From an uncultured Solirubrobacteraceae bacterium (GTDB lineage: Bacteria; Actinomycetota; Thermoleophilia; Solirubrobacterales; Solirubrobacteraceae): a DNA stretch of 41,005 nucleotides. Of the stretch, positions 1,734-29,059 are shown piece by piece; within the stretch, counting starts at the first letter, position 1, and every line of letters starts with the position of its first letter. Under the pieces are notes generated by a model. The model was not told the origin of the DNA. It saw only the letters and a program-made list of their open reading frames with translations, and did not search any database. Both the position numbers and the translations under genes were made by a program. The stretch lies in the NCBI GenBank assembly GCA_902806205.1, contig CADCVR010000106.1, forward strand, positions 1-41,005, read 5' to 3'.

Positions 1734-2628
1734 GTGCGCCTGGTGCGGCGCCGCGCTGCCGGGCGCCGCCGAATCCGGCCAGGCCTGGCACGTCGTGCGC
1801 TGCGCGGCGTGCTCGGCCGGGACGACGCAGCCCTGGCCCACCCCGGCGGAGCTCGAGGCGGCCTACCCGGACGCCTACCGGCCCGCGGCGGGCCGCTTCG
1901 GGAGTCACGGCGACCGGCTGCTTTCCTGGTCGCGCGGCCTCCTGGCCCGCCGCGTCGATGCGCTGGCACCGCCCGGCCCCGTGCTCGACGTGGGCGCGGG
2001 CGACGGGTCGCTGCTGCGTGCGCTGCGCGCCCGCGGGCGCGACGGGCTCGGTCTCGAGCGCCACGCCGCCGTGCACGCCGGCGTCCCGATGCGCGACGCG
2101 GGGGTCGCCGACCTGCCCGGAGGCTGGGCGGCGATCGTCTTCTGGCACGCGCTCGAGCACCTGCCGGCACCCGCCGCCGAGCTGGCCGCCGCGGCCGAGC
2201 GGCTGGCGCCGGGCGGCGTGCTGGTCATCGCCGTGCCGAACCCGGGCAGCCTGCAGGCTCGCATGTCCGGCGCGGACTGGCTGGCGCTCGACCTCCCGCG
2301 CCACCTCGTCCACGTTCCCCGCGAAGTGCTGCTCGGCCGGCTCGCCGAGCTCGGCCTGTCGGTGGAGCGGGTGAGCGGCTGGCGTGGCGGGCAGGTCGGC
2401 TTCGGCATGCTGCACGGGCTCGTCCGGCGCCTCCCGGGCCGCCCTGACCTCTACGATGCCGTCCGTCGCCCGGGGGCGAGGCTGCGGGCGCAGGGGCAGA
2501 CCGAACGCCGCCGGGCGCTGGCCGCCGGAGCGCTTCTGGCTCCGCTCGCGGGGGTCGCCGCCGCCGCCGAGATCGCCCTGCGCCGAGCGGGGACAACCTA
2601 CGTCGAGGCCCGCCGTGTCCACCCCTGA
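1714..2628 (+). CDS. Class I SAM-dependent methyltransferase with N-terminal zinc ribbon
   Basis: The protein of 304 residues starts with a four-cysteine zinc-ribbon-like knuckle (CxxC at 8-11, CxxC at 30-33). A Rossmann methyltransferase core follows, with SAM motif I VLDVGAGDG near residue 89, the acidic FWHALEHLP segment, and the APGGVLVIAVPN post-core strand. Zinc-ribbon methyltransferases of this layout are common in surface-polysaccharide clusters, where they modify nucleotide sugars or glycan ends; the substrate cannot be read here. ATG 1714 overlaps the preceding gene by 20 bases; ATG 1723 in the same frame is an alternative. The last 14 bases overlap the next gene if its GTG is used. 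Confidence 0.88.
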   Translation: MSFMPAECAWCGAALPGAAESGQAWHVVRCAACSAGTTQPWPTPAELEAAYPDAYRPAAGRFGSHGDRLLSWSRGLLARRVDALAPPGPVLDVGAGDGSLLRALRARGRDGLGLERHAAVHAGVPMRDAGVADLPGGWAAIVFWHALEHLPAPAAELAAAAERLAPGGVLVIAVPNPGSLQARMSGADWLALDLPRHLVHVPREVLLGRLAELGLSVERVSGWRGGQVGFGMLHGLVRRLPGRPDLYDAVRRPGARLRAQGQTERRRALAAGALLAPLAGVAAAAEIALRRAGTTYVEARRVHP

Positions 2629-3400
2629 ACCCGTCATGTCACCCGAGCTCTCGCTCAAGGAGGGCAAGAAGGTGGTCGTCGTCATGCCGGCGCGCAACGC
2701 GGCACGGACGCTCGAGAACACCGTCTCGGGCATCGACCGCGCCTGGGTCGACGAGATCATCCTGGTCGACGACTTCTCCACGGACGAGACCGTCCGCCTG
2801 GCGCGCACCCTGCCGGAGCTGCACGTCCTGTGGCATCCGCACAACGTGGGCTACGGCGGCAATCAGAAGACGTGCTACCTCCAAGCGCTCCAGCAGGACG
2901 CCGACGTCGTCGTGATGCTCCACCCCGACGGCCAGTACGAGCCCTCGCTGATCTCGCAGCTCGTCGCGCCGATCCTGCGCGGGGAGCACGACCTCGTCCT
3001 CGGGTCGCGCTTCGCGGACCCCGGCGGGGCGCGCGCGGGGGGCATGCCCTGGTGGAAGTGGCTGGCCAACCGCGGGCTCACCCGGATCGAGAACCGGGTG
3101 CTCGGCACGGAGCTGTCGGAGATGCACACGGGCTATCGCGCCTACTCGCGCGAGCTGCTCATGGGGATCCCGTTCCTGCGCAACGCCCTCGACTTCTCCT
3201 TCGACTCGGAGGTGCTCATGCAGGCCGTTCACCTGGGCTACCGGATCGGGGAGGTCCCGACGCGGACGATCTACTTCGACGACGCGTCGTCGATCGGGTT
3301 GCGCGCCTCGACGGTCTACGGGATCAAGACCCTGGGTGCCGCCGGGCGCCTCGTGCTCCACCGCAACGGCGTGCTGCGCAGCCGGAAGTTCTCGCCGTGA
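2615..3400 (+). CDS. Family 2 glycosyltransferase (dolichol-phosphate mannosyltransferase-like)
   Basis: A GT-A fold: VVVVMPARNAARTL near the N-terminus, ILVDDFSTDET, then MLHPDGQYEP where the HPDGQ motif takes the place of the usual DxD/DADGQ metal site, followed by LGSRF. This is the pattern of polyprenyl-phosphate hexose synthases and related GT2 enzymes that move a sugar from a nucleotide donor to a lipid carrier on the cytoplasmic side. There are no C-terminal helices, so it is the soluble type (about 261 residues). GTG 2615 is chosen because GAGG lies six bases upstream and it overlaps the previous stop; ATG 2636 is an alternative. The product could feed the GT-C-like protein two genes upstream. 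Confidence 0.88.
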   Translation: MSTPEPVMSPELSLKEGKKVVVVMPARNAARTLENTVSGIDRAWVDEIILVDDFSTDETVRLARTLPELHVLWHPHNVGYGGNQKTCYLQALQQDADVVVMLHPDGQYEPSLISQLVAPILRGEHDLVLGSRFADPGGARAGGMPWWKWLANRGLTRIENRVLGTELSEMHTGYRAYSRELLMGIPFLRNALDFSFDSEVLMQAVHLGYRIGEVPTRTIYFDDASSIGLRASTVYGIKTLGAAGRLVLHRNGVLRSRKFSP

Positions 3401-4155
3401 TGGTCAGCGGCGAACGGGTCACGACCGCCGCCGGCGGCTTCAACCCGACGTTCCAGCGCCACGTCGCCGCCTACCGGCTGTGCGCTCCCCTGCTGCCCGG
3501 CCCGCCCGGGCGCGTGCTCGACCTGGGCTGCGGGGCGGGTCACTCCTTCGCCGAGCTGGCGCCGCGCGAGAGCGTCGGGGTCGACCTCGACGCGGACGCC
3601 CTGCACGGCCAGCCGCGCGAGACCGTGGCCGCCGACATGCGCGCGCTGCCGTTCGTGGACGGCAGCTTCGGGAGCGTGCTGGCGGTGCAGTCGATCGAGC
3701 ACGTCGGCAACCCGGAGCGGGTCGTCGCCGAGGCGCGGCGGGTGCTCGAGCCGGGCGGAACGGCGGTCTGGGTGACCCCGAACCGGCTGACCTTCGGACG
3801 ACCCGACGAGATCATCGACCCCTACCACTGGGTGGAGTACGACGCCGCGCAGCTCTCGGCGCTCCTGTCGCAGGCCTTCACCGCGGTGGAACTTCTCGGG
3901 ATCGCCGGGTCGCCGCGCTACGCCGAGTTCGACCGCCGGGAGAAGGCCCGCATGGAGCGCGTGCTGCGGCTCGACCCGCTGGGCCTGCGCCGCCGCCTGC
4001 CGCGCCGGGTGATGCAGCGCGCCTACGACATCGCGCTGACCGTGACGCGCCGCCGGACGACCGCCGCGGGCGCGGGGATCACCCCCGAGGACTTCAGCCT
4101 GGTGCGCGACGACCTCGACGGGGTGCTGGACCTCGTGGCGGTGTGCCAGGCGTGA
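3400..4155 (+). CDS. Class I SAM-dependent methyltransferase (Methyltransf_11-like)
   Basis: The 251-residue protein has motif I VLDLGCGAG at 39-47, the acidic VGVDLDADAL strand end, DMRALPFVDGSF and the post-motif VLEPGGTAVWVTPN, the standard SAM-methyltransferase order. Start ATG 3400 uses the last base of the preceding stop (TGATG), so translation is probably coupled. The C-terminal ~80 residues are basic and Leu/Arg-rich with no clear domain. As the second methyltransferase of this cluster it likely acts on the same lipid-linked or surface glycan, but the substrate is unknown. Confidence 0.87.
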   Translation: MVSGERVTTAAGGFNPTFQRHVAAYRLCAPLLPGPPGRVLDLGCGAGHSFAELAPRESVGVDLDADALHGQPRETVAADMRALPFVDGSFGSVLAVQSIEHVGNPERVVAEARRVLEPGGTAVWVTPNRLTFGRPDEIIDPYHWVEYDAAQLSALLSQAFTAVELLGIAGSPRYAEFDRREKARMERVLRLDPLGLRRRLPRRVMQRAYDIALTVTRRRTTAAGAGITPEDFSLVRDDLDGVLDLVAVCQA

Positions 4156-4592
4156 AGCGCCGGCCGATCGACGGCGCCTGGCCGGCCCTGCCGCTGCTCA
4201 CGCTCGCGATCGCGGCGATCGTGGCGGTGCTGGGCATCGTGGCCGCACCTCAGCCGACCGACGCAGACCGGATCGCCGACACGGTGGAGGACTTCGCGCA
4301 GGCCGTGCAGGAGCGCCGCGGCACGGACGCCTGCGCGCTGCTGACCCCCGCCGCCCGCCAGGCCACGGCCGCCCGCACGGGGACGCTGAGCTGCGCGGAG
4401 TTCGTCCGCTCGTTCGGCTTCGGCTTCGACGCGGGCACGTTGCGCGTGGCACGGGTCGTCGAGGTGGACATCGCCGGCGACCGGGCGACGATCCCCCGCG
4501 ATCGGCTCCTCGTTCCCGGCGGCAAGCCGTTCGGCCGCGCCCTCGCGCTCGAGCGCATCGACGGCGCCTGGCGCATCGCGGCGGCCGGGTAG
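4152..4592 (+). CDS. Small membrane-anchored protein, NTF2/DUF4878-like
   Basis: GTG 4152 overlaps the upstream stop by four bases (GTGA). The 146-residue product has a short basic N-terminus, one hydrophobic helix at about 12-33, and a soluble domain of about 110 residues. This domain begins with a helix (DTVEDFAQAVQERRG), has a CALLTP segment, and ends in strands closing with ALERIDGAWRIAAAG. That pattern resembles NTF2-like lumazine-binding domains of secreted actinobacterial proteins. Two cysteines (in DACALL and SCAEF) could form a disulfide. It closes the operon, and the next gene is convergent five bases away. No specific function can be assigned. Confidence 0.7.
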   Translation: MKRRPIDGAWPALPLLTLAIAAIVAVLGIVAAPQPTDADRIADTVEDFAQAVQERRGTDACALLTPAARQATAARTGTLSCAEFVRSFGFGFDAGTLRVARVVEVDIAGDRATIPRDRLLVPGGKPFGRALALERIDGAWRIAAAG

Positions 4593-4596
4593 CGCG

Positions 4597-5223
4597 TCAG
4601 ATCGCCGGCGGCGGCTCGCCGCGGGCGAAGCGCTCGAGCGCGAGGGCCAGCGCCGGCAGGTAGCTCGCGGGAACGAGCTCCTGGCGCGCGATCTGCGTCG
4701 CGGTGACCGCCCGTCCGTCCCACTCGCGTCCGGGCCAGGGACCGGGGATCGCGCCGCAGGCGAGCTCGGCGAAGTGCTCCACGACAATCCAGGCCAGGCC
4801 GGCGACCTCGGCACGGTCGAAGCCCGTCCACGCCTCGAGCGGCCGGGAGTCGCGCGTGAGGAACACATGCTGGAACTCGCGGTTGGTCGTCGCCGGGGTC
4901 GGATGATCGACCACGGGACGCATCCCGAGGTCCTCGAGCGTGGCGAGCGCGAACGTCACGCCGAGCTCCTCCTCCGCCTCACGGACGCCGTCGCCGACCG
5001 ACTCGCCCGCGGTCAGGTGGCCGGCCGCGGTGGCGTCGAGCATCCCTCCGAAGGCCTCCTTGTCGCGGGCGCGGCGCTGGAGCAGCACGCCGTCGCCCGA
5101 GACCACCCACAGGTGGAAGCAGCGGTGCCAGAGACCGTCGCGGTGCACGACGTCGCGGCGCTCGACGCCGACCCACCCGCCGCGCTCGTCGTAGACGTCG
5201 AGGAGCTCCCCCGGATCAGTCAC
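4597..5223 (-). CDS. Nudix hydrolase, isopentenyl-diphosphate isomerase/YfcD-like
   Basis: About 208 residues. The Nudix box is present as a GHLTAGES...REAEEELG pattern, preceded by LHRxFHLWV-like and LLQRRARDKE strands typical of the IDI/YfcD type of Nudix proteins that act on diphosphate compounds. GTG at 5223 is chosen because it overlaps by four bases (GTGA) the stop of the small frame at 5220-5441, which in turn overlaps the CoA-transferase gene, so the three are probably translated as a coupled unit. Upstream of this start the frame becomes Arg/Pro-rich and does not look like protein. The substrate is unknown. Confidence 0.85.
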   Translation of the reverse strand: MTDPGELLDVYDERGGWVGVERRDVVHRDGLWHRCFHLWVVSGDGVLLQRRARDKEAFGGMLDATAAGHLTAGESVGDGVREAEEELGVTFALATLEDLGMRPVVDHPTPATTNREFQHVFLTRDSRPLEAWTGFDRAEVAGLAWIVVEHFAELACGAIPGPWPGREWDGRAVTATQIARQELVPASYLPALALALERFARGEPPPAI

Positions 5224-25624: not shown

Positions 25625-26839
25625 GTGTCGGCCGAGATCGAGCAGCGACTGGCCGAGCTGGAGGCCGCCGGGCTGCGGCGGCGCACGCGGCTCGTCGGCG
25701 GTCCGCAGGGACCGCGCGTGGTGCTCGACGGCCGGCCCGTCCTGCTGCTCTGCTCGAACAACTACCTCGGACTGGCCGGTCACCCCCGGGTGCGCGAGGC
25801 GGCGGCCGACGCCGCGATGCGCTGGGGCGCGGGCACCGGCGGCTCACGGCTGGTCAGCGGAAACATGACGATCCACCAGCGCCTCGAAGAGCGCCTCGCC
25901 GCGTTCAAGGGCTCGGAGCGGGCGCTGCTGTTCGGCTCGGGCTACCTCGCGAATCTCGGAGTGATCGGCGCACTCGGCGAGGCCGGGACGCTCGTCTGCT
26001 CCGACGAGCTCAACCACGCCTCGATCGTCGACGGCTGCCGGCTGGCCCGCGGGCGCACCGCGGTCTACGCCCACGGCGACGTCGAGCACCTGCGCCGGCT
26101 GCTCGACCAGGCCCCAGAGCCCCACGCCGTGGTGGTCACCGACTCCGTCTTCTCGATGGACGGAGACGTCGCACCGCTCGAGGAGCTGGCGGCACTGACG
26201 CGCTCCCGCGGGGCCCGGCTCGTCGTCGACGAGGCGCACGCGACGGGCTGCGTCGGGCCCGGCGGCCGGGGCGCGGTGGCCGAGGCGGGGCTCGACGGCG
26301 AGGAGCACGTCGTCGTGGTCGGCACGCTCGGAAAGGCGCTCGGCGCCTACGGCGCCTTCGCCGCCTGCTCGGCAGCGGTGCGCGAGCTGCTCGTCAACAC
26401 CGCCCGCCCGTTCATCTTCTCCACCGCGCCGCCGCCGTCCGCACTCGCTGGAGCCCAGGCGGCGCTCGAGCTGCTCGAGGAGCAGCCCGAGCGCGTCGAC
26501 CGGCTGCGGGACAACGCGCGGACGCTACGCGACGAGCTCGCGCGCGAGGGCTTCGACGTCGAGGGTTCCACGACGCAGATCGTGCCGCTCGTGATCGGCG
26601 AGGCGGCCCAGGCGATGGCCATCTGCGAGGCGGCGCTGGAGCGCGGCGTCTTCGCGCAGGCGATCCGGCCACCGACGGTCCCCGCCGGAACATCCCGGCT
26701 ACGGCTGACGGTGATGGCCTCGCACACCGCAGAGGACCTGCGCGAGGCGGCGCGAACGCTCGGGCGCGCCGCGCAGGAGGCGGGCCTACGCCCGGGCGAA
26801 GGGATACCGGTCGTGGCAGCCGCCCCCTCCTACTACTGA
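25625..26839 (+). CDS. bioF: 8-amino-7-oxononanoate synthase
   Basis: A PLP-dependent alpha-oxoamine synthase of 404 residues: [57 protein letters not shown] (202-208) and the PLP lysine Lys237 in GTLGKALG. It condenses L-alanine with a pimeloyl thioester, the first committed step of biotin ring assembly. GTG 25625 has AAAGGAG at 25613-25619. The stop is followed within about 15 bases by the end of the IS110-family element, which separates it from bioD. Confidence 0.95.
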
Positions 26840-27146
26840 TATGGGCGGCGGTTTGTCAAGTGGGCGTAGGTGATCGTGTCCGCGGGGCGGGCTGGTGGAG
26901 CGGTTGGTCGGTGCGGCGGGGCGCCGGGCTCGGTGTCGGCGTTGCCAGTCTGATGATGCGGGGATTGGTGACCCCAGGGCCCGGGTTTCGTGCTGCCGGC
27001 GAGCGCTGTCTAGGAACGAGCGTGGCGCGTTCTCCCCTTCGCTGAGCGGGAGTCGGCGCTGCTCATAGAAGAGTCGCGCGTGCCGGCCGCCTGTGGCCCC
27101 GGCGCCCCGGCCCACCGACCGGGACTTCGTTGTCAGCCGTGGCGGG
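26840..27146 (-). other. 3' non-coding end of the IS110 element; candidate bridge-RNA region
   Basis: No credible gene is present in these 307 bases. On the minus strand there are short stems (CTCCC/GGGAG around 27032-27052, GGGG/CCCC around 26960-26976) and the outward TTGACA at 26859-26854. IS1111-type members of the family keep their bridge RNA in a long 3' non-coding end; the length here fits, but I could not trace a complete guide fold. Confidence 0.35.
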
Positions 27147-28232
27147 TCAGTCGGCGGTCACCGCGGCCCACAGGAAGCAGGACAGCTCGCGCGCGCAGGC
27201 GACCACCGCGACGTTGGCGGGCTTGCCGCGGGCGCGCATCCGCTGGTGGACGCGGTAGAGGCGCTGCTGGGCACGGTTGGAGATGGCCAGGACGTGGGCG
27301 GGCTGGTCTTCTTGGCGGTTGCGAAGCGTCGCGCCGACTCGTGGCTCGCGGCTGTAGTGCCAGGCCGATTCGACGAGCAGGCGCCTGGCAAAGATGGAGC
27401 CGGTCTTGGTGATCTGGCCTTGCCGGGAGGACTCTCCGGACTGCGAAAGCGACGGCGTCAGGCCCAGCCAGGCGGCCAGCTGCGGCGCGCGCTCGAAGCG
27501 CTTCCAGTCGGCGCCGAGCTCGAGATGCAACGCCAACGCGGTCAGCGTGTCGATGCCGCGGAACGCGCGCAGCCGGGCGACCTGCGGCCACCAGCGCTCA
27601 TCGAGCGCGAGCTCGCTCAGGCGCAGCGCGATCGCTGCCTTGCGCGCGGTCAGCCCGTCGACCTGGGCGACAAGATCGGCGAAGGCCATCTCGGTCGCCG
27701 GCTCTGAGAACTGCTGACGTGACAGCCAGGTGCGGTGTACGCGGTTCCATGTGGTGGCGCCGTCGTAGACGCGCCCGTGGCGCAGCAGTAGCTTTGAGAC
27801 GCGATGGCGGGCGTTCATCAGATCGCGCCGGCAGGCGTCGTGGCCGCGCATCAGATCACGGGCGGCCTCGACCTCCGGGGGCGGGACGACGACCGCCGTC
27901 AACCCGCCCGCCAGCAACAACCGCGCGAGCAGCTCGGCGTACTTCTTGTCGGTCTTGACGCGATCAGATGGTCCGCGTGGCGTCTTGCCCGGCGCGATCA
28001 CCTGCACCGCCAGGCCCTCCGCCGCGGCGGCGCGGTAGAGCCCGTAGCCGGTCGGACCCGCCTCGTAACAGGCGCGGACCGGGGCCTCGAGCTTGGCCAG
28101 CCACGCGACCGGCTCATCGACCCCGGGCCCGAACCGCGCGCGCGTCAGCTCACCGGTCAGCGTGCTGATCGCCGCCGCGTGCGTCGAACGAGCATGGACA
28201 TCAAGACCCACCCACGTCATTGTCTGGCTCAT
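27147..28232 (-). CDS. IS110-family transposase (DEDD RuvC-like), fourth acidic residue replaced by Tyr
   Basis: The 361-residue protein has the N-terminal RuvC-like domain (WVGLDVHARSTHAA with Asp11, CYEAGPTGYGL with Glu57, RVKTDKKYAELLARL with Asp95), a helical middle, and the C-terminal Tnp20 domain (LRAFRGIDTLTALAL, LAAWLGLTPSLSQSG, ITKTGSIFARRLLVESAWHY) with the expected Ser (Ser265) before Gly. The family motif is normally KTDRRDA; here it is KTDKKYA, so the fourth DEDD residue is Tyr98 (TAC instead of GAC). That may disable this copy. AGGAGG lies seven bases before ATG 28232 inside a possible RNA structure. Confidence 0.92.
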   Translation of the reverse strand: MSQTMTWVGLDVHARSTHAAAISTLTGELTRARFGPGVDEPVAWLAKLEAPVRACYEAGPTGYGLYRAAAAEGLAVQVIAPGKTPRGPSDRVKTDKKYAELLARLLLAGGLTAVVVPPPEVEAARDLMRGHDACRRDLMNARHRVSKLLLRHGRVYDGATTWNRVHRTWLSRQQFSEPATEMAFADLVAQVDGLTARKAAIALRLSELALDERWWPQVARLRAFRGIDTLTALALHLELGADWKRFERAPQLAAWLGLTPSLSQSGESSRQGQITKTGSIFARRLLVESAWHYSREPRVGATLRNRQEDQPAHVLAISNRAQQRLYRVHQRMRARGKPANVAVVACARELSCFLWAAVTAD

Positions 28233-28310
28233 GGCCGGACCTCCTCATTCTTCTGGAGTCAGCCGGAGCCGTTCTCCGGCCAGACAAGCCCCCGCGAGGA
28301 GCGTCCGGCC
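28220..28310 (-). promoter_or_regulatory. Interleaved inverted repeats over the transposase start
   Basis: Reading the minus strand, GGCCGGAC (28310-28303) pairs with GTCCGGCC (28240-28233), which includes the last base of the Shine-Dalgarno sequence. TTGTCTGGC (28287-28279) pairs with GCCAGACAA (28228-28220), just inside the coding region. The two stems interleave, so together they would form a pseudoknot enclosing AGGAGG and the ATG. A third hairpin GCCGGAG/CTCCGGC (28280-28262) lies between. This may repress transposase translation or be part of a guide RNA fold. Confidence 0.5.
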
Positions 28311-28352
28311 ACCAGCCCCGGCAGTCAACCCGAAGCCCGAGCGACCGCTACA

Positions 28353-28358
28353 TAGGGT
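28353..28358 (+). promoter_or_regulatory. -10-like box TAGGGT for bioD (leaderless spacing)
   Basis: TAGGGT ends eight bases before GTG 28367, giving bioD its own promoter despite the insertion upstream. Confidence 0.45.
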
Positions 28359-28366
28359 CTAGTCTC

Positions 28367-29059
28367 GTGCGCGGCGTCTTGGTCACCGCGACCGACACGG
28401 GAGTCGGCAAGACGGTGCTGGGCGCCGCGATCTGTGCGGTCCTTCGTGCCCGCGGGGAGCACGTCGCCGCCTACAAACCGGTCGTCACCGGGGTCGCCGA
28501 GCCCGAGCCGGGCATCCCCCCCGACCACGTGCTGCTCGCTGCGTGCACGGGCCAGCGTCCCGAGGAGGTCAGCCCGCACACGTTCGGCCCGGCCGTCTCA
28601 CCCCATCTCGCGGCCGCCGGCGCGCCGCTGGAGCCCGCGAGGCTGGAGGCCGCGGCGCGCGCCGCGGCTCCCGGGGACGGCGTGCTCGTCGCCGAGGGAG
28701 TCGGCGGGCTGCTCGTCCCGTTCGACGAGCGGGGCTACGACGTGCGCGCGCTCGCCCGCGCGCTCGGGCTGCCGGTCGTGATCGCCGCGCGTCCCGGCCT
28801 GGGCACGATCAATCACGCGCTGCTGACGATCGAGGCGGCGTGTTCGGCGGGCCTCGACGTGCGGGGAGTGGTGCTCACACCGTGGCCCGCCGTACCCTCC
28901 GCGATGGAGCGCTCGAATGCGGTGACGATCGCGTCGCTCGGCGACGTCACGGTCAGCCACCTCCCGCGCGCGGCGGCGCTGACGCCCGCCGCACTGGCGC
29001 GGGCGGGAGCAGAGCTGCCCGTCGACCGCTGGATCGGTGCGGCGACAGCACCGGACTGA
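28367..29059 (+). CDS. bioD: Dethiobiotin synthetase
   Basis: The 230-residue P-loop protein begins RGVLVTATDTGVGKT, with the ATP-binding loop at 8-16. It continues with YKPVVTGV (substrate Lys), PHTFGPAVSPHLAA, LVAEGVGGLLVPF and VVIAARPGLGTINHALLTIE, the diagnostic BioD series. It closes the ureido ring of biotin from 7,8-diaminopelargonate, CO2 and ATP. GTG 28367 is chosen; the upstream frame runs into the IS element and is not protein-like. bioF lies 1.5 kb upstream across the insertion. Confidence 0.95.
   Translation: MRGVLVTATDTGVGKTVLGAAICAVLRARGEHVAAYKPVVTGVAEPEPGIPPDHVLLAACTGQRPEEVSPHTFGPAVSPHLAAAGAPLEPARLEAAARAAAPGDGVLVAEGVGGLLVPFDERGYDVRALARALGLPVVIAARPGLGTINHALLTIEAACSAGLDVRGVVLTPWPAVPSAMERSNAVTIASLGDVTVSHLPRAAALTPAALARAGAELPVDRWIGAATAPD

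What the first reader, a model, noticed from the sequence alone, without database searches (positions are those of the whole stretch)
26840..27146. Long 3' non-coding end with outward TTGACA: possible bridge-RNA locus of the IS110 element
Seen: 300 gene-free bases after the transposase, with a perfect TTGACA pointing outward within about 20 bases of the bioF stop. Known: IS110/IS1111 elements make a guide RNA from a non-coding end and build a -35/-10 promoter across the circle junction. Inference: the -35 half lies here and the guide RNA lies either in this end (IS1111 style) or in the 5' end at 28233-28345.
Basis: partly seen in the sequence, partly recalled or inferred. Interest (0 to 1): 0.6.

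Follow-up and report, generated by a model that had tools for sequence, protein, structure and literature searches.

The report
Guide-RNA end of a jumping gene
The 300 gene-free bases are the far end of a bacterial jumping gene and encode a folded guide RNA whose short guide matches the place where each copy has landed, an established kind of mechanism found here in a little-studied branch; this particular copy probably can no longer jump.

Summary
The stretch is the 3' non-coding end of an IS110-family element (window 26836-28360, minus strand; 1,523 bp counting one core), inserted in the bioF stop codon. Alignment of related copies puts 26840-27146 inside the element. TTGACA (26854-26859) lies 24 nt from the end in 20 of 21 distinct copies. 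Window 26905-27120 encodes a structured RNA: 15 of 46 consensus pairs show compensatory change, and a covariance model built without the window copy finds it at E=6e-22. Its right-target guide covaries with the flank of each copy (31 sites, 19 guides; positions 2 and 3 match 31/31; 0 of 10,000 guide shuffles reach the observed score). An unbiased scan of the whole element picks that spot alone (z 10.7). The 5' end carries an RBS-sequestering leader instead. The junction promoter is half supported: no canonical -10 at a usable spacing. Subterminal repeats are only 4-7 bp, so it is not a classical IS1111; its transposase groups with ISSso6/ISEc45. The window copy has Tyr for the fourth catalytic Asp and is probably inactive. 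No RNA was observed; function is inferred.

The parts
26836..28360 (-). Whole IS110-family element, LE at 28360, RE at 26836; core CT (AG on the minus strand) at both ends (26836-26837 and 28359-28360); 1,523 bp counting one core
   Evidence: Alignment of 17-18 copies at different sites: all LE start YTAGACC.., all RE end CATATCAG
27147..28232 (-). Transposase/recombinase, 361 aa, IS110 family (RuvC-like DEDD + Tnp domain); fourth catalytic Asp replaced by Tyr98 (codon 27939-27941)
   Evidence: Pfam PF01548 + PF02371, NCBIfam NF033542 RNA-guided transposase, alignment
26905..27120 (-). Predicted bridge/seekRNA with long outer stem (GGTCGGTG..GGGGCGCC with GGCGCCCC..CACCGACC), target-binding hairpin and donor-binding hairpin
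   Evidence: fold z -4.1; 46 consensus pairs, 15 with changes on both sides; controls; covariance model without the window copy, E 6e-22 for 26944-27089
27067..27073 (-). Right target guide (RNA 5'-CUCUU-CU-3'), complement of core AG plus right flank; in this copy positions 2 and 3 match, 1 and 4 do not
   Evidence: Covariation with own flanks across 31 sites; sole peak of an element-wide scan
27010..27014 (-). Left target guide (RNA CCUAG), matches left flank Y-T plus core AG
   Evidence: Top position of the element-wide left-flank scan, z 5.0; Y position identical 21/24, the other 3 G-U compatible; L033 and the G002 family have TTAG in the RNA
26948..26958 (-). Probable left donor guide (CAUCAUCAGAC), resembling RE terminus CATATCAG joined to LE
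   Evidence: Invariant TCAGA in 16 copies; exact ATATCAG in the 49% family, ISSso6 and the Gordonia element
26970..26978 (-). Tentative right donor guide (CCUGGGGUC), 8 of 9 pairs with LE GACCCTATG including one wobble; also forms the GGGG/CCCC hairpin
   Evidence: Sequence inspection; no covariation shown; weak
26854..26859 (-). TTGACA, outward, 24 nt from the RE end: -35-like box or recombinase site
   Evidence: Conserved position; no canonical -10 at 16-18 bp
28233..28358 (-). 5' leader of the transposase: hairpin that pairs the Shine-Dalgarno and start-codon region
   Evidence: fold z -3.7; conserved stem in 10 copies
25625..26839 (+). bioF; its TAG stop (ancestral TAC-TAG) was the target and is now TGA, GA supplied by the element end
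   Evidence: Sequence; relatives have bioF directly followed by bioD without an insertion
28367..29059 (+). bioD, intact, separated from bioF by the element
   Evidence: Pfam AAA_26; relatives

Best explanation
The region is the 3' non-coding end of an IS110-family insertion sequence and encodes a bridge/seekRNA of about 216 nt (window 26905-27120, minus strand). Transcripts running through the transposase gene would supply the RNA. It folds into a long outer stem that holds a target-binding and a donor-binding hairpin. In the target loop the right guide (NNNNCU) pairs with core AG plus 3-4 bases of the right target, and the left guide (NYUAG) pairs with the other strand of the left target and core, so a short Y-TAG-NNN(N) site is chosen. 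The donor loop reads the joined ends of the circular element. Shown by comparison: element limits, conserved fold, right-guide/target covariation, left-guide covariation at 1-2 positions. Inferred: transcription, binding to the transposase, donor pairing, recombination. The window copy probably cannot act by itself because its fourth catalytic Asp is Tyr.
For: Element limits shared by copies at different sites. Guide-flank covariation: 31 sites, 19 guides, positions 1-4 match 24, 31, 31 and 15 of 31; score 62.3 of 76 against a shuffled mean of 24.5 and maximum of 40.8 in 10,000 shuffles; in the first set only the exact register works. Element-wide scan finds this spot alone, z 10.7, runner-up about 3.5. 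Left guide is the top spot of its own scan, z 5.0. Compensatory base changes and controls. Window RNA folds better than all 200 shuffles. Covariance model without the window copy hits it at E 6e-22, and relatives down to a Gordonia plasmid (2e-5) and ISSso6 (0.0055), with no other hit in the window.
Against: No RNA data. The window copy matches its own right flank at only two of the first four positions and has lost a catalytic Asp, so this copy is not itself evidence of function. The right donor guide shows no covariation. The donor guides and the core are too conserved to test by covariation.
Confidence: 0.94

Rival explanations
1. The guide RNA lies in the 5' end (IS110 style, 28233-28358) and the 3' end is only an untranslated tail.
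For: Most IS110-group elements encode the bridge RNA in the LE (PMC11208160); the 5' leader is also conserved and folded.
Against: No LE position covaries with the right flank beyond background; the one strong peak is in the 3' end. The conserved LE part is nearly invariant among copies with different targets. Its structure pairs the RBS and start region.
Confidence: 0.02
2. The 3' RNA is a regulatory small RNA for transposase expression (like Ssr9 of ISPpu9) rather than a guide.
For: ISPpu9 has a downstream sRNA and an RBS-sequestering 5'-UTR (PMC8450116); this element has a similar leader.
Against: A regulator would not covary with the chromosomal flank of each copy. A dual role is not excluded.
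Confidence: 0.04
3. For the TTGACA only: it is a recombinase or end-recognition site, not a -35 box of a junction promoter.
For: Fixed at 24 nt from the terminus, yet the reconstructed junction has at best GACCCT/GACCAT at spacing 17 and TATG-type hexamers at spacing 22.
Against: Junction promoters have been shown in other members (PMC11187229); TTGACA is the exact sigma70 -35 consensus; Solirubrobacterales -10 preferences were not modelled.
Confidence: 0.45

Closest known systems
ISSso6 / ISEc45 (named IS110-family elements in Shigella and E. coli)
   Same: Closest named transposases found (41% and 39% identity); same clade in the tree; ISSso6 3' region is hit by the covariance model over its full length (E 0.0055) and has the GCGG..CCGCGAATATCAG donor-loop motif.
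   Different: ISEc45 gives no model hit; no guide-target test was made for either here.
IS1111-group elements (ISEc11, ISKpn4, ISPa11; seekRNA, PMC11187229)
   Same: Longer non-coding region and guide RNA downstream of tnp; top-strand complement before bottom-strand match; GLxPxxxxSG motif with GxITKxG in the C-terminal domain.
   Different: Subterminal inverted repeats only 4-7 bp instead of 11-13; end extensions differ; no model hit in IS5708 or ISShdy1, used as IS1111-like references.
IS621 and ISCro4 (IS110 group; bridge RNA, PMC11208160)
   Same: Same domain architecture (PDB matches to ISCro4 and IS621); short ATA/TAT-type subterminal repeats flanking the donor; two guide loops by inference.
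   Different: Bridge RNA in the RE instead of the LE; guide order reversed; shorter target footprint (about YTAG + 3-4 nt against an 11-bp target in IS621).
ISEc21 (IS110 type with upstream NCR)
   Same: Family and length class of transposase (358 aa).
   Different: NCR upstream; 21% identity to the window transposase; no model hit.

Membership tests
IS110 family (ISfinder sense, including IS1111) | Transposase with RuvC-like DEDD domain and Tnp domain (PF01548 + PF02371) | tested here: met
   the window copy itself has Tyr for the 4th Asp, relatives keep Asp
IS110 family (ISfinder sense, including IS1111) | Insertion at a specific site without target duplication beyond a shared core | tested here: met
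   All copies sit at Y-T-AG; joined flanks share one AG core; bioF-bioD is abutted without an insertion in relatives
Bridge/seekRNA system | Non-coding end encodes a structured RNA with guides that match the target | tested here: met
Bridge/seekRNA system | RNA also pairs with the donor (RE-LE junction) | tested here: inconclusive
   Left donor guide resembles or equals the RE terminus; right donor guide partial, no covariation
Bridge/seekRNA system | RNA is expressed and bound by the transposase | not testable with these tools
   Needs RNA sequencing or co-purification
IS1111 group | Longer non-coding region downstream of tnp, holding the guide RNA | tested here: met
   About 310 nt downstream, about 126 nt upstream; guide in the 3' end
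IS1111 group | Subterminal inverted repeats of 11-13 bp with 7/3 or 6/3 bp extensions | tested here: not met
   Exact repeats of 4-7 bp in 14 copies (4 in the window) with 8 bp between them in the circle
IS1111 group | Guide complementary to the top strand precedes the guide matching the top strand | tested here: met
   Right target guide at 27067-27073 is transcribed before the left target guide at 27010-27014
IS110 group proper (IS621-like) | Bridge RNA in the LE upstream of tnp | tested here: not met
IS110/IS1111 elements | Sigma70-like promoter formed across the circle junction | tested here: inconclusive
   -35 conserved, no canonical -10 at 16-18 bp

The most novel reading that the evidence does not exclude
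This ISSso6-like branch is a third arrangement between the IS110 and IS1111 groups: IS110-type short subterminal repeats, IS1111-type 3' location and guide order, its own RNA architecture closed by a long outer stem, and an unusually short programmable target (Y-TAG + 3-4 nt) that often falls on stop codons simply because CTAG is rare inside genes. Its guides have been naturally reprogrammed many times within one bacterial order.
Probability: 0.5. Interest if true: 0.55.

Novelty: new variant of a known kind. Interest (0 to 1): 0.45.

Why it matters
It places the guide RNA of an uncharacterised branch of RNA-guided IS elements by guide-target covariation in natural copies, and gives a testable reading of its target code. 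A published account notes that some IS110-type elements have the long non-coding region downstream of tnp (PMC11187229); the one IS110-type element it tests, ISEc21, has it upstream. A compact recombinase with a short, naturally varied target guide bears on how the IS110 and IS1111 arrangements are related and on how little guide is enough.

Tried and rejected
Rfam has no matching family in the window, so published bridge-RNA models could not be run; a model was built here instead. A genome contigs protein search found nothing. A 14-base pattern scan of genome contigs returned mostly chance matches, only a few true members. Stop-codon preference: 16 of 24 sites end a frame of 100 codons or more, but so do 7 of 10 background CTAGs in the window, so no preference beyond CTAG itself is shown (the joined window there was off by two bases, which does not affect the count). 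In one search the element strings began 12 nt early: printed window positions must be raised by 12 (peak at 27071), and the left-flank scan there is invalid and was redone. Left target positions beyond -1 show no covariation. Right donor guide covariation was looked for by eye only and not found. The tree has one mis-extracted row (L009) on a long branch and no rooted reference set; only the window/ISSso6/ISEc45 grouping is used. The ISEc11 record was not held.

Full report
WHAT IS THERE. The window lies in a 3.38-Mb draft genome. Relatives of this element are also found in Paraconexibacter antarcticus and Svornostia abyssi, both Solirubrobacterales, so the host is very likely a member of that order. 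The transposase 27147-28232 (minus, 361 aa) has the DEDD and Tnp domains of the IS110 family. Related copies occur in the same genome (76% and 92% identity, some broken) and in 29 of 146 genomes of the family at E below 1e-60.

LIMITS. Alignment of copies at unrelated sites shows that homology starts at YTAGACC(C/A)TATG at the left end and stops at CATATCAG at the right end. In the window this is 28362 to 26836. The dinucleotide AG (CT on the plus strand) is present at both ends and is the inferred core; with one core the element is 1,523 bp. The finding's stretch is therefore inside the element. The joined flanks read TAC-TAG-TCTC-GTG: the element is inserted in the bioF stop codon, with bioD starting a few bases on. 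The insertion changed the stop from TAG to TGA and left both proteins intact. Three relatives have bioF followed directly by bioD without an insertion.

THE RNA. Window 26905-27120 (minus) folds better than all 200 shuffles (z -4.1, on a stretch shifted by one base). Aligned with 15 relatives, RNAalifold gives 46 pairs, 15 with changes on both sides that keep the pair. A hand-drawn structure of 44 pairs keeps 91.9% of cells paired, has more double changes than shuffles (30 cells against 10.8), and collapses when the partner is slid by one to three columns. The outer stem (GGTCGGTG with CACCGACC, GGGGCGCC with GGCGCCCC) carries most of the covariation. Inside are two hairpins. A covariance model made from 12 copies, the window's left out, finds the window's 3' end at E 6e-22 and nothing else in the window. 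It also finds the 49%-identical family, a Gordonia plasmid element (2e-5) and ISSso6 (0.0055), always over its full length. It does not find ISEc21, IS5708, ISShdy1 or ISEc45.

THE TARGET GUIDE. Just 5' of an invariant CTATG(A/G)GCA lies a five-base variable stretch. Read as a complement, it predicts the bases to the right of the core. In 31 distinct sites with 19 guides, positions 1 to 4 match in 24, 31, 31 and 15 cases, against 25-37% in mismatched pairings. No one of 10,000 shuffles of guides among elements comes near the observed score. In the first set of 21 sites only the exact register works. A scan of every position of the aligned elements, in both senses, finds this one spot at z 10.7, next best about 3.5 (positions to be raised by 12). 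The left guide is the YTAG in the 3' strand of the same loop: it is the top position of the left-flank scan (z 5.0). Elements with TTAG in the RNA sit at TTAG, or at CTAG which a G-U pair would allow. So the target is about N-Y-T-AG-N-N-N-(N). The complement of the top strand comes first, as reported for IS1111 seekRNAs (PMC11187229).

THE DONOR GUIDE. The second hairpin carries CAUCAUCAGAC, or exactly CAUAUCAG in the more distant groups, equal or close to the RE terminus. The opposite strand CCUGGGGUC could pair with LE GACCCTATG at eight of nine positions, one of them a wobble. These ends are nearly invariant, so covariation cannot test the reading, and the right donor guide is tentative.

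THE PROMOTER. TTGACA starts 24 nt from the RE end in 20 of 21 copies chosen without regard to it. Across the reconstructed junction the hexamer at spacing 17 is GACCCT or GACCAT; TATG-type hexamers lie at spacing 22. A junction promoter is plausible by family precedent, but not shown; a recombinase or end-recognition role fits the fixed distance equally well.

THE 5' END. The leader 28233-28358 folds strongly (z -3.7). It pairs GGCCGGAC-CUCCUC with GAGGAGG-UCCGGCC, that is, the Shine-Dalgarno and the bases before the start codon. The stem persists in ten copies, and the G002 family has GGCCGGTC with GACCGGCC. This resembles the RBS-sequestering 5'-UTR reported for ISPpu9 (PMC8450116). It is not a guide: it is nearly constant among copies with different targets.

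THIS COPY. The motif K-T-D-x-x-D-A reads KTDKKYA here: the fourth catalytic Asp is Tyr98. A 92% identical, truncated sister copy in the same genome has Val there; the other homologues aligned have Asp. In IS621 mutation of the equivalent D105 abolishes recombination (PMC11208158). With the imperfect match of its guide to its own flank, this copy is probably inactive by itself.

FAMILY. It has IS1111 features (3' RNA, guide order, GLxPxxxxSG and GxITKxG motifs) but not the defining 11-13 bp subterminal repeats: the repeats are 4-7 bp, with some covariation between the two ends at positions 5-7 (shuffle fraction 0.006). The nearest named elements are ISSso6 and ISEc45. Siddiquee et al. note that some IS110-type elements have a downstream non-coding region and that further families may be embedded. 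I file it as an IS110-family bridge-RNA element of an uncharacterised branch, and claim membership neither in IS1111 nor in the IS621-like group.

WHAT IS SHOWN AND WHAT IS NOT. Shown from sequence comparison: limits, fold, target-guide covariation, conserved TTGACA, lost catalytic residue. Inferred: transcription, RNA binding, donor pairing, transposition.

Noticed in passing
window 27939-27941 (codon 98 of 27147-28232, minus): The fourth catalytic Asp of the DEDD motif is Tyr in this copy and Val in a truncated sister copy of the same genome (L003); the other aligned homologues keep Asp.
   Followed up: yes
window 28233-28358, minus: Conserved transposase leader that pairs the ribosome-binding site and start-codon region, like the ISPpu9 5'-UTR; it looks like translational control.
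   Followed up: partly
window 26830-26839 and 28359-28369: The element sits exactly in the bioF stop codon (TAG to TGA), between bioF and bioD, leaving both proteins intact but splitting the operon by 1.5 kb.
   Followed up: yes
window, whole: CTAG is about tenfold rarer than expected from base composition (10 against about 97), and most remaining CTAGs end long open frames.
   Followed up: partly
L079 positions about 1501-1620: A shortened copy: right target guide followed after only 109 nt by TTGACA and CATATCAG, without the left guide; its guide predicts AGAAGCC and the flank reads AGAAGCC. Possibly an internally deleted derivative.
   Followed up: no
L210 2166-2289 (ISSso6) and L212 2121-2261 (Gordonia plasmid p174): The same RNA architecture is detectable in the 3' ends of a named Shigella element and an actinobacterial plasmid element.
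   Followed up: partly
L127 (Svornostia abyssi CP088295.1) 1968-5066: Two copies in opposite orientation about 3 kb apart in one stretch; this cultured strain has several intact copies and would be a good test organism.
   Followed up: no
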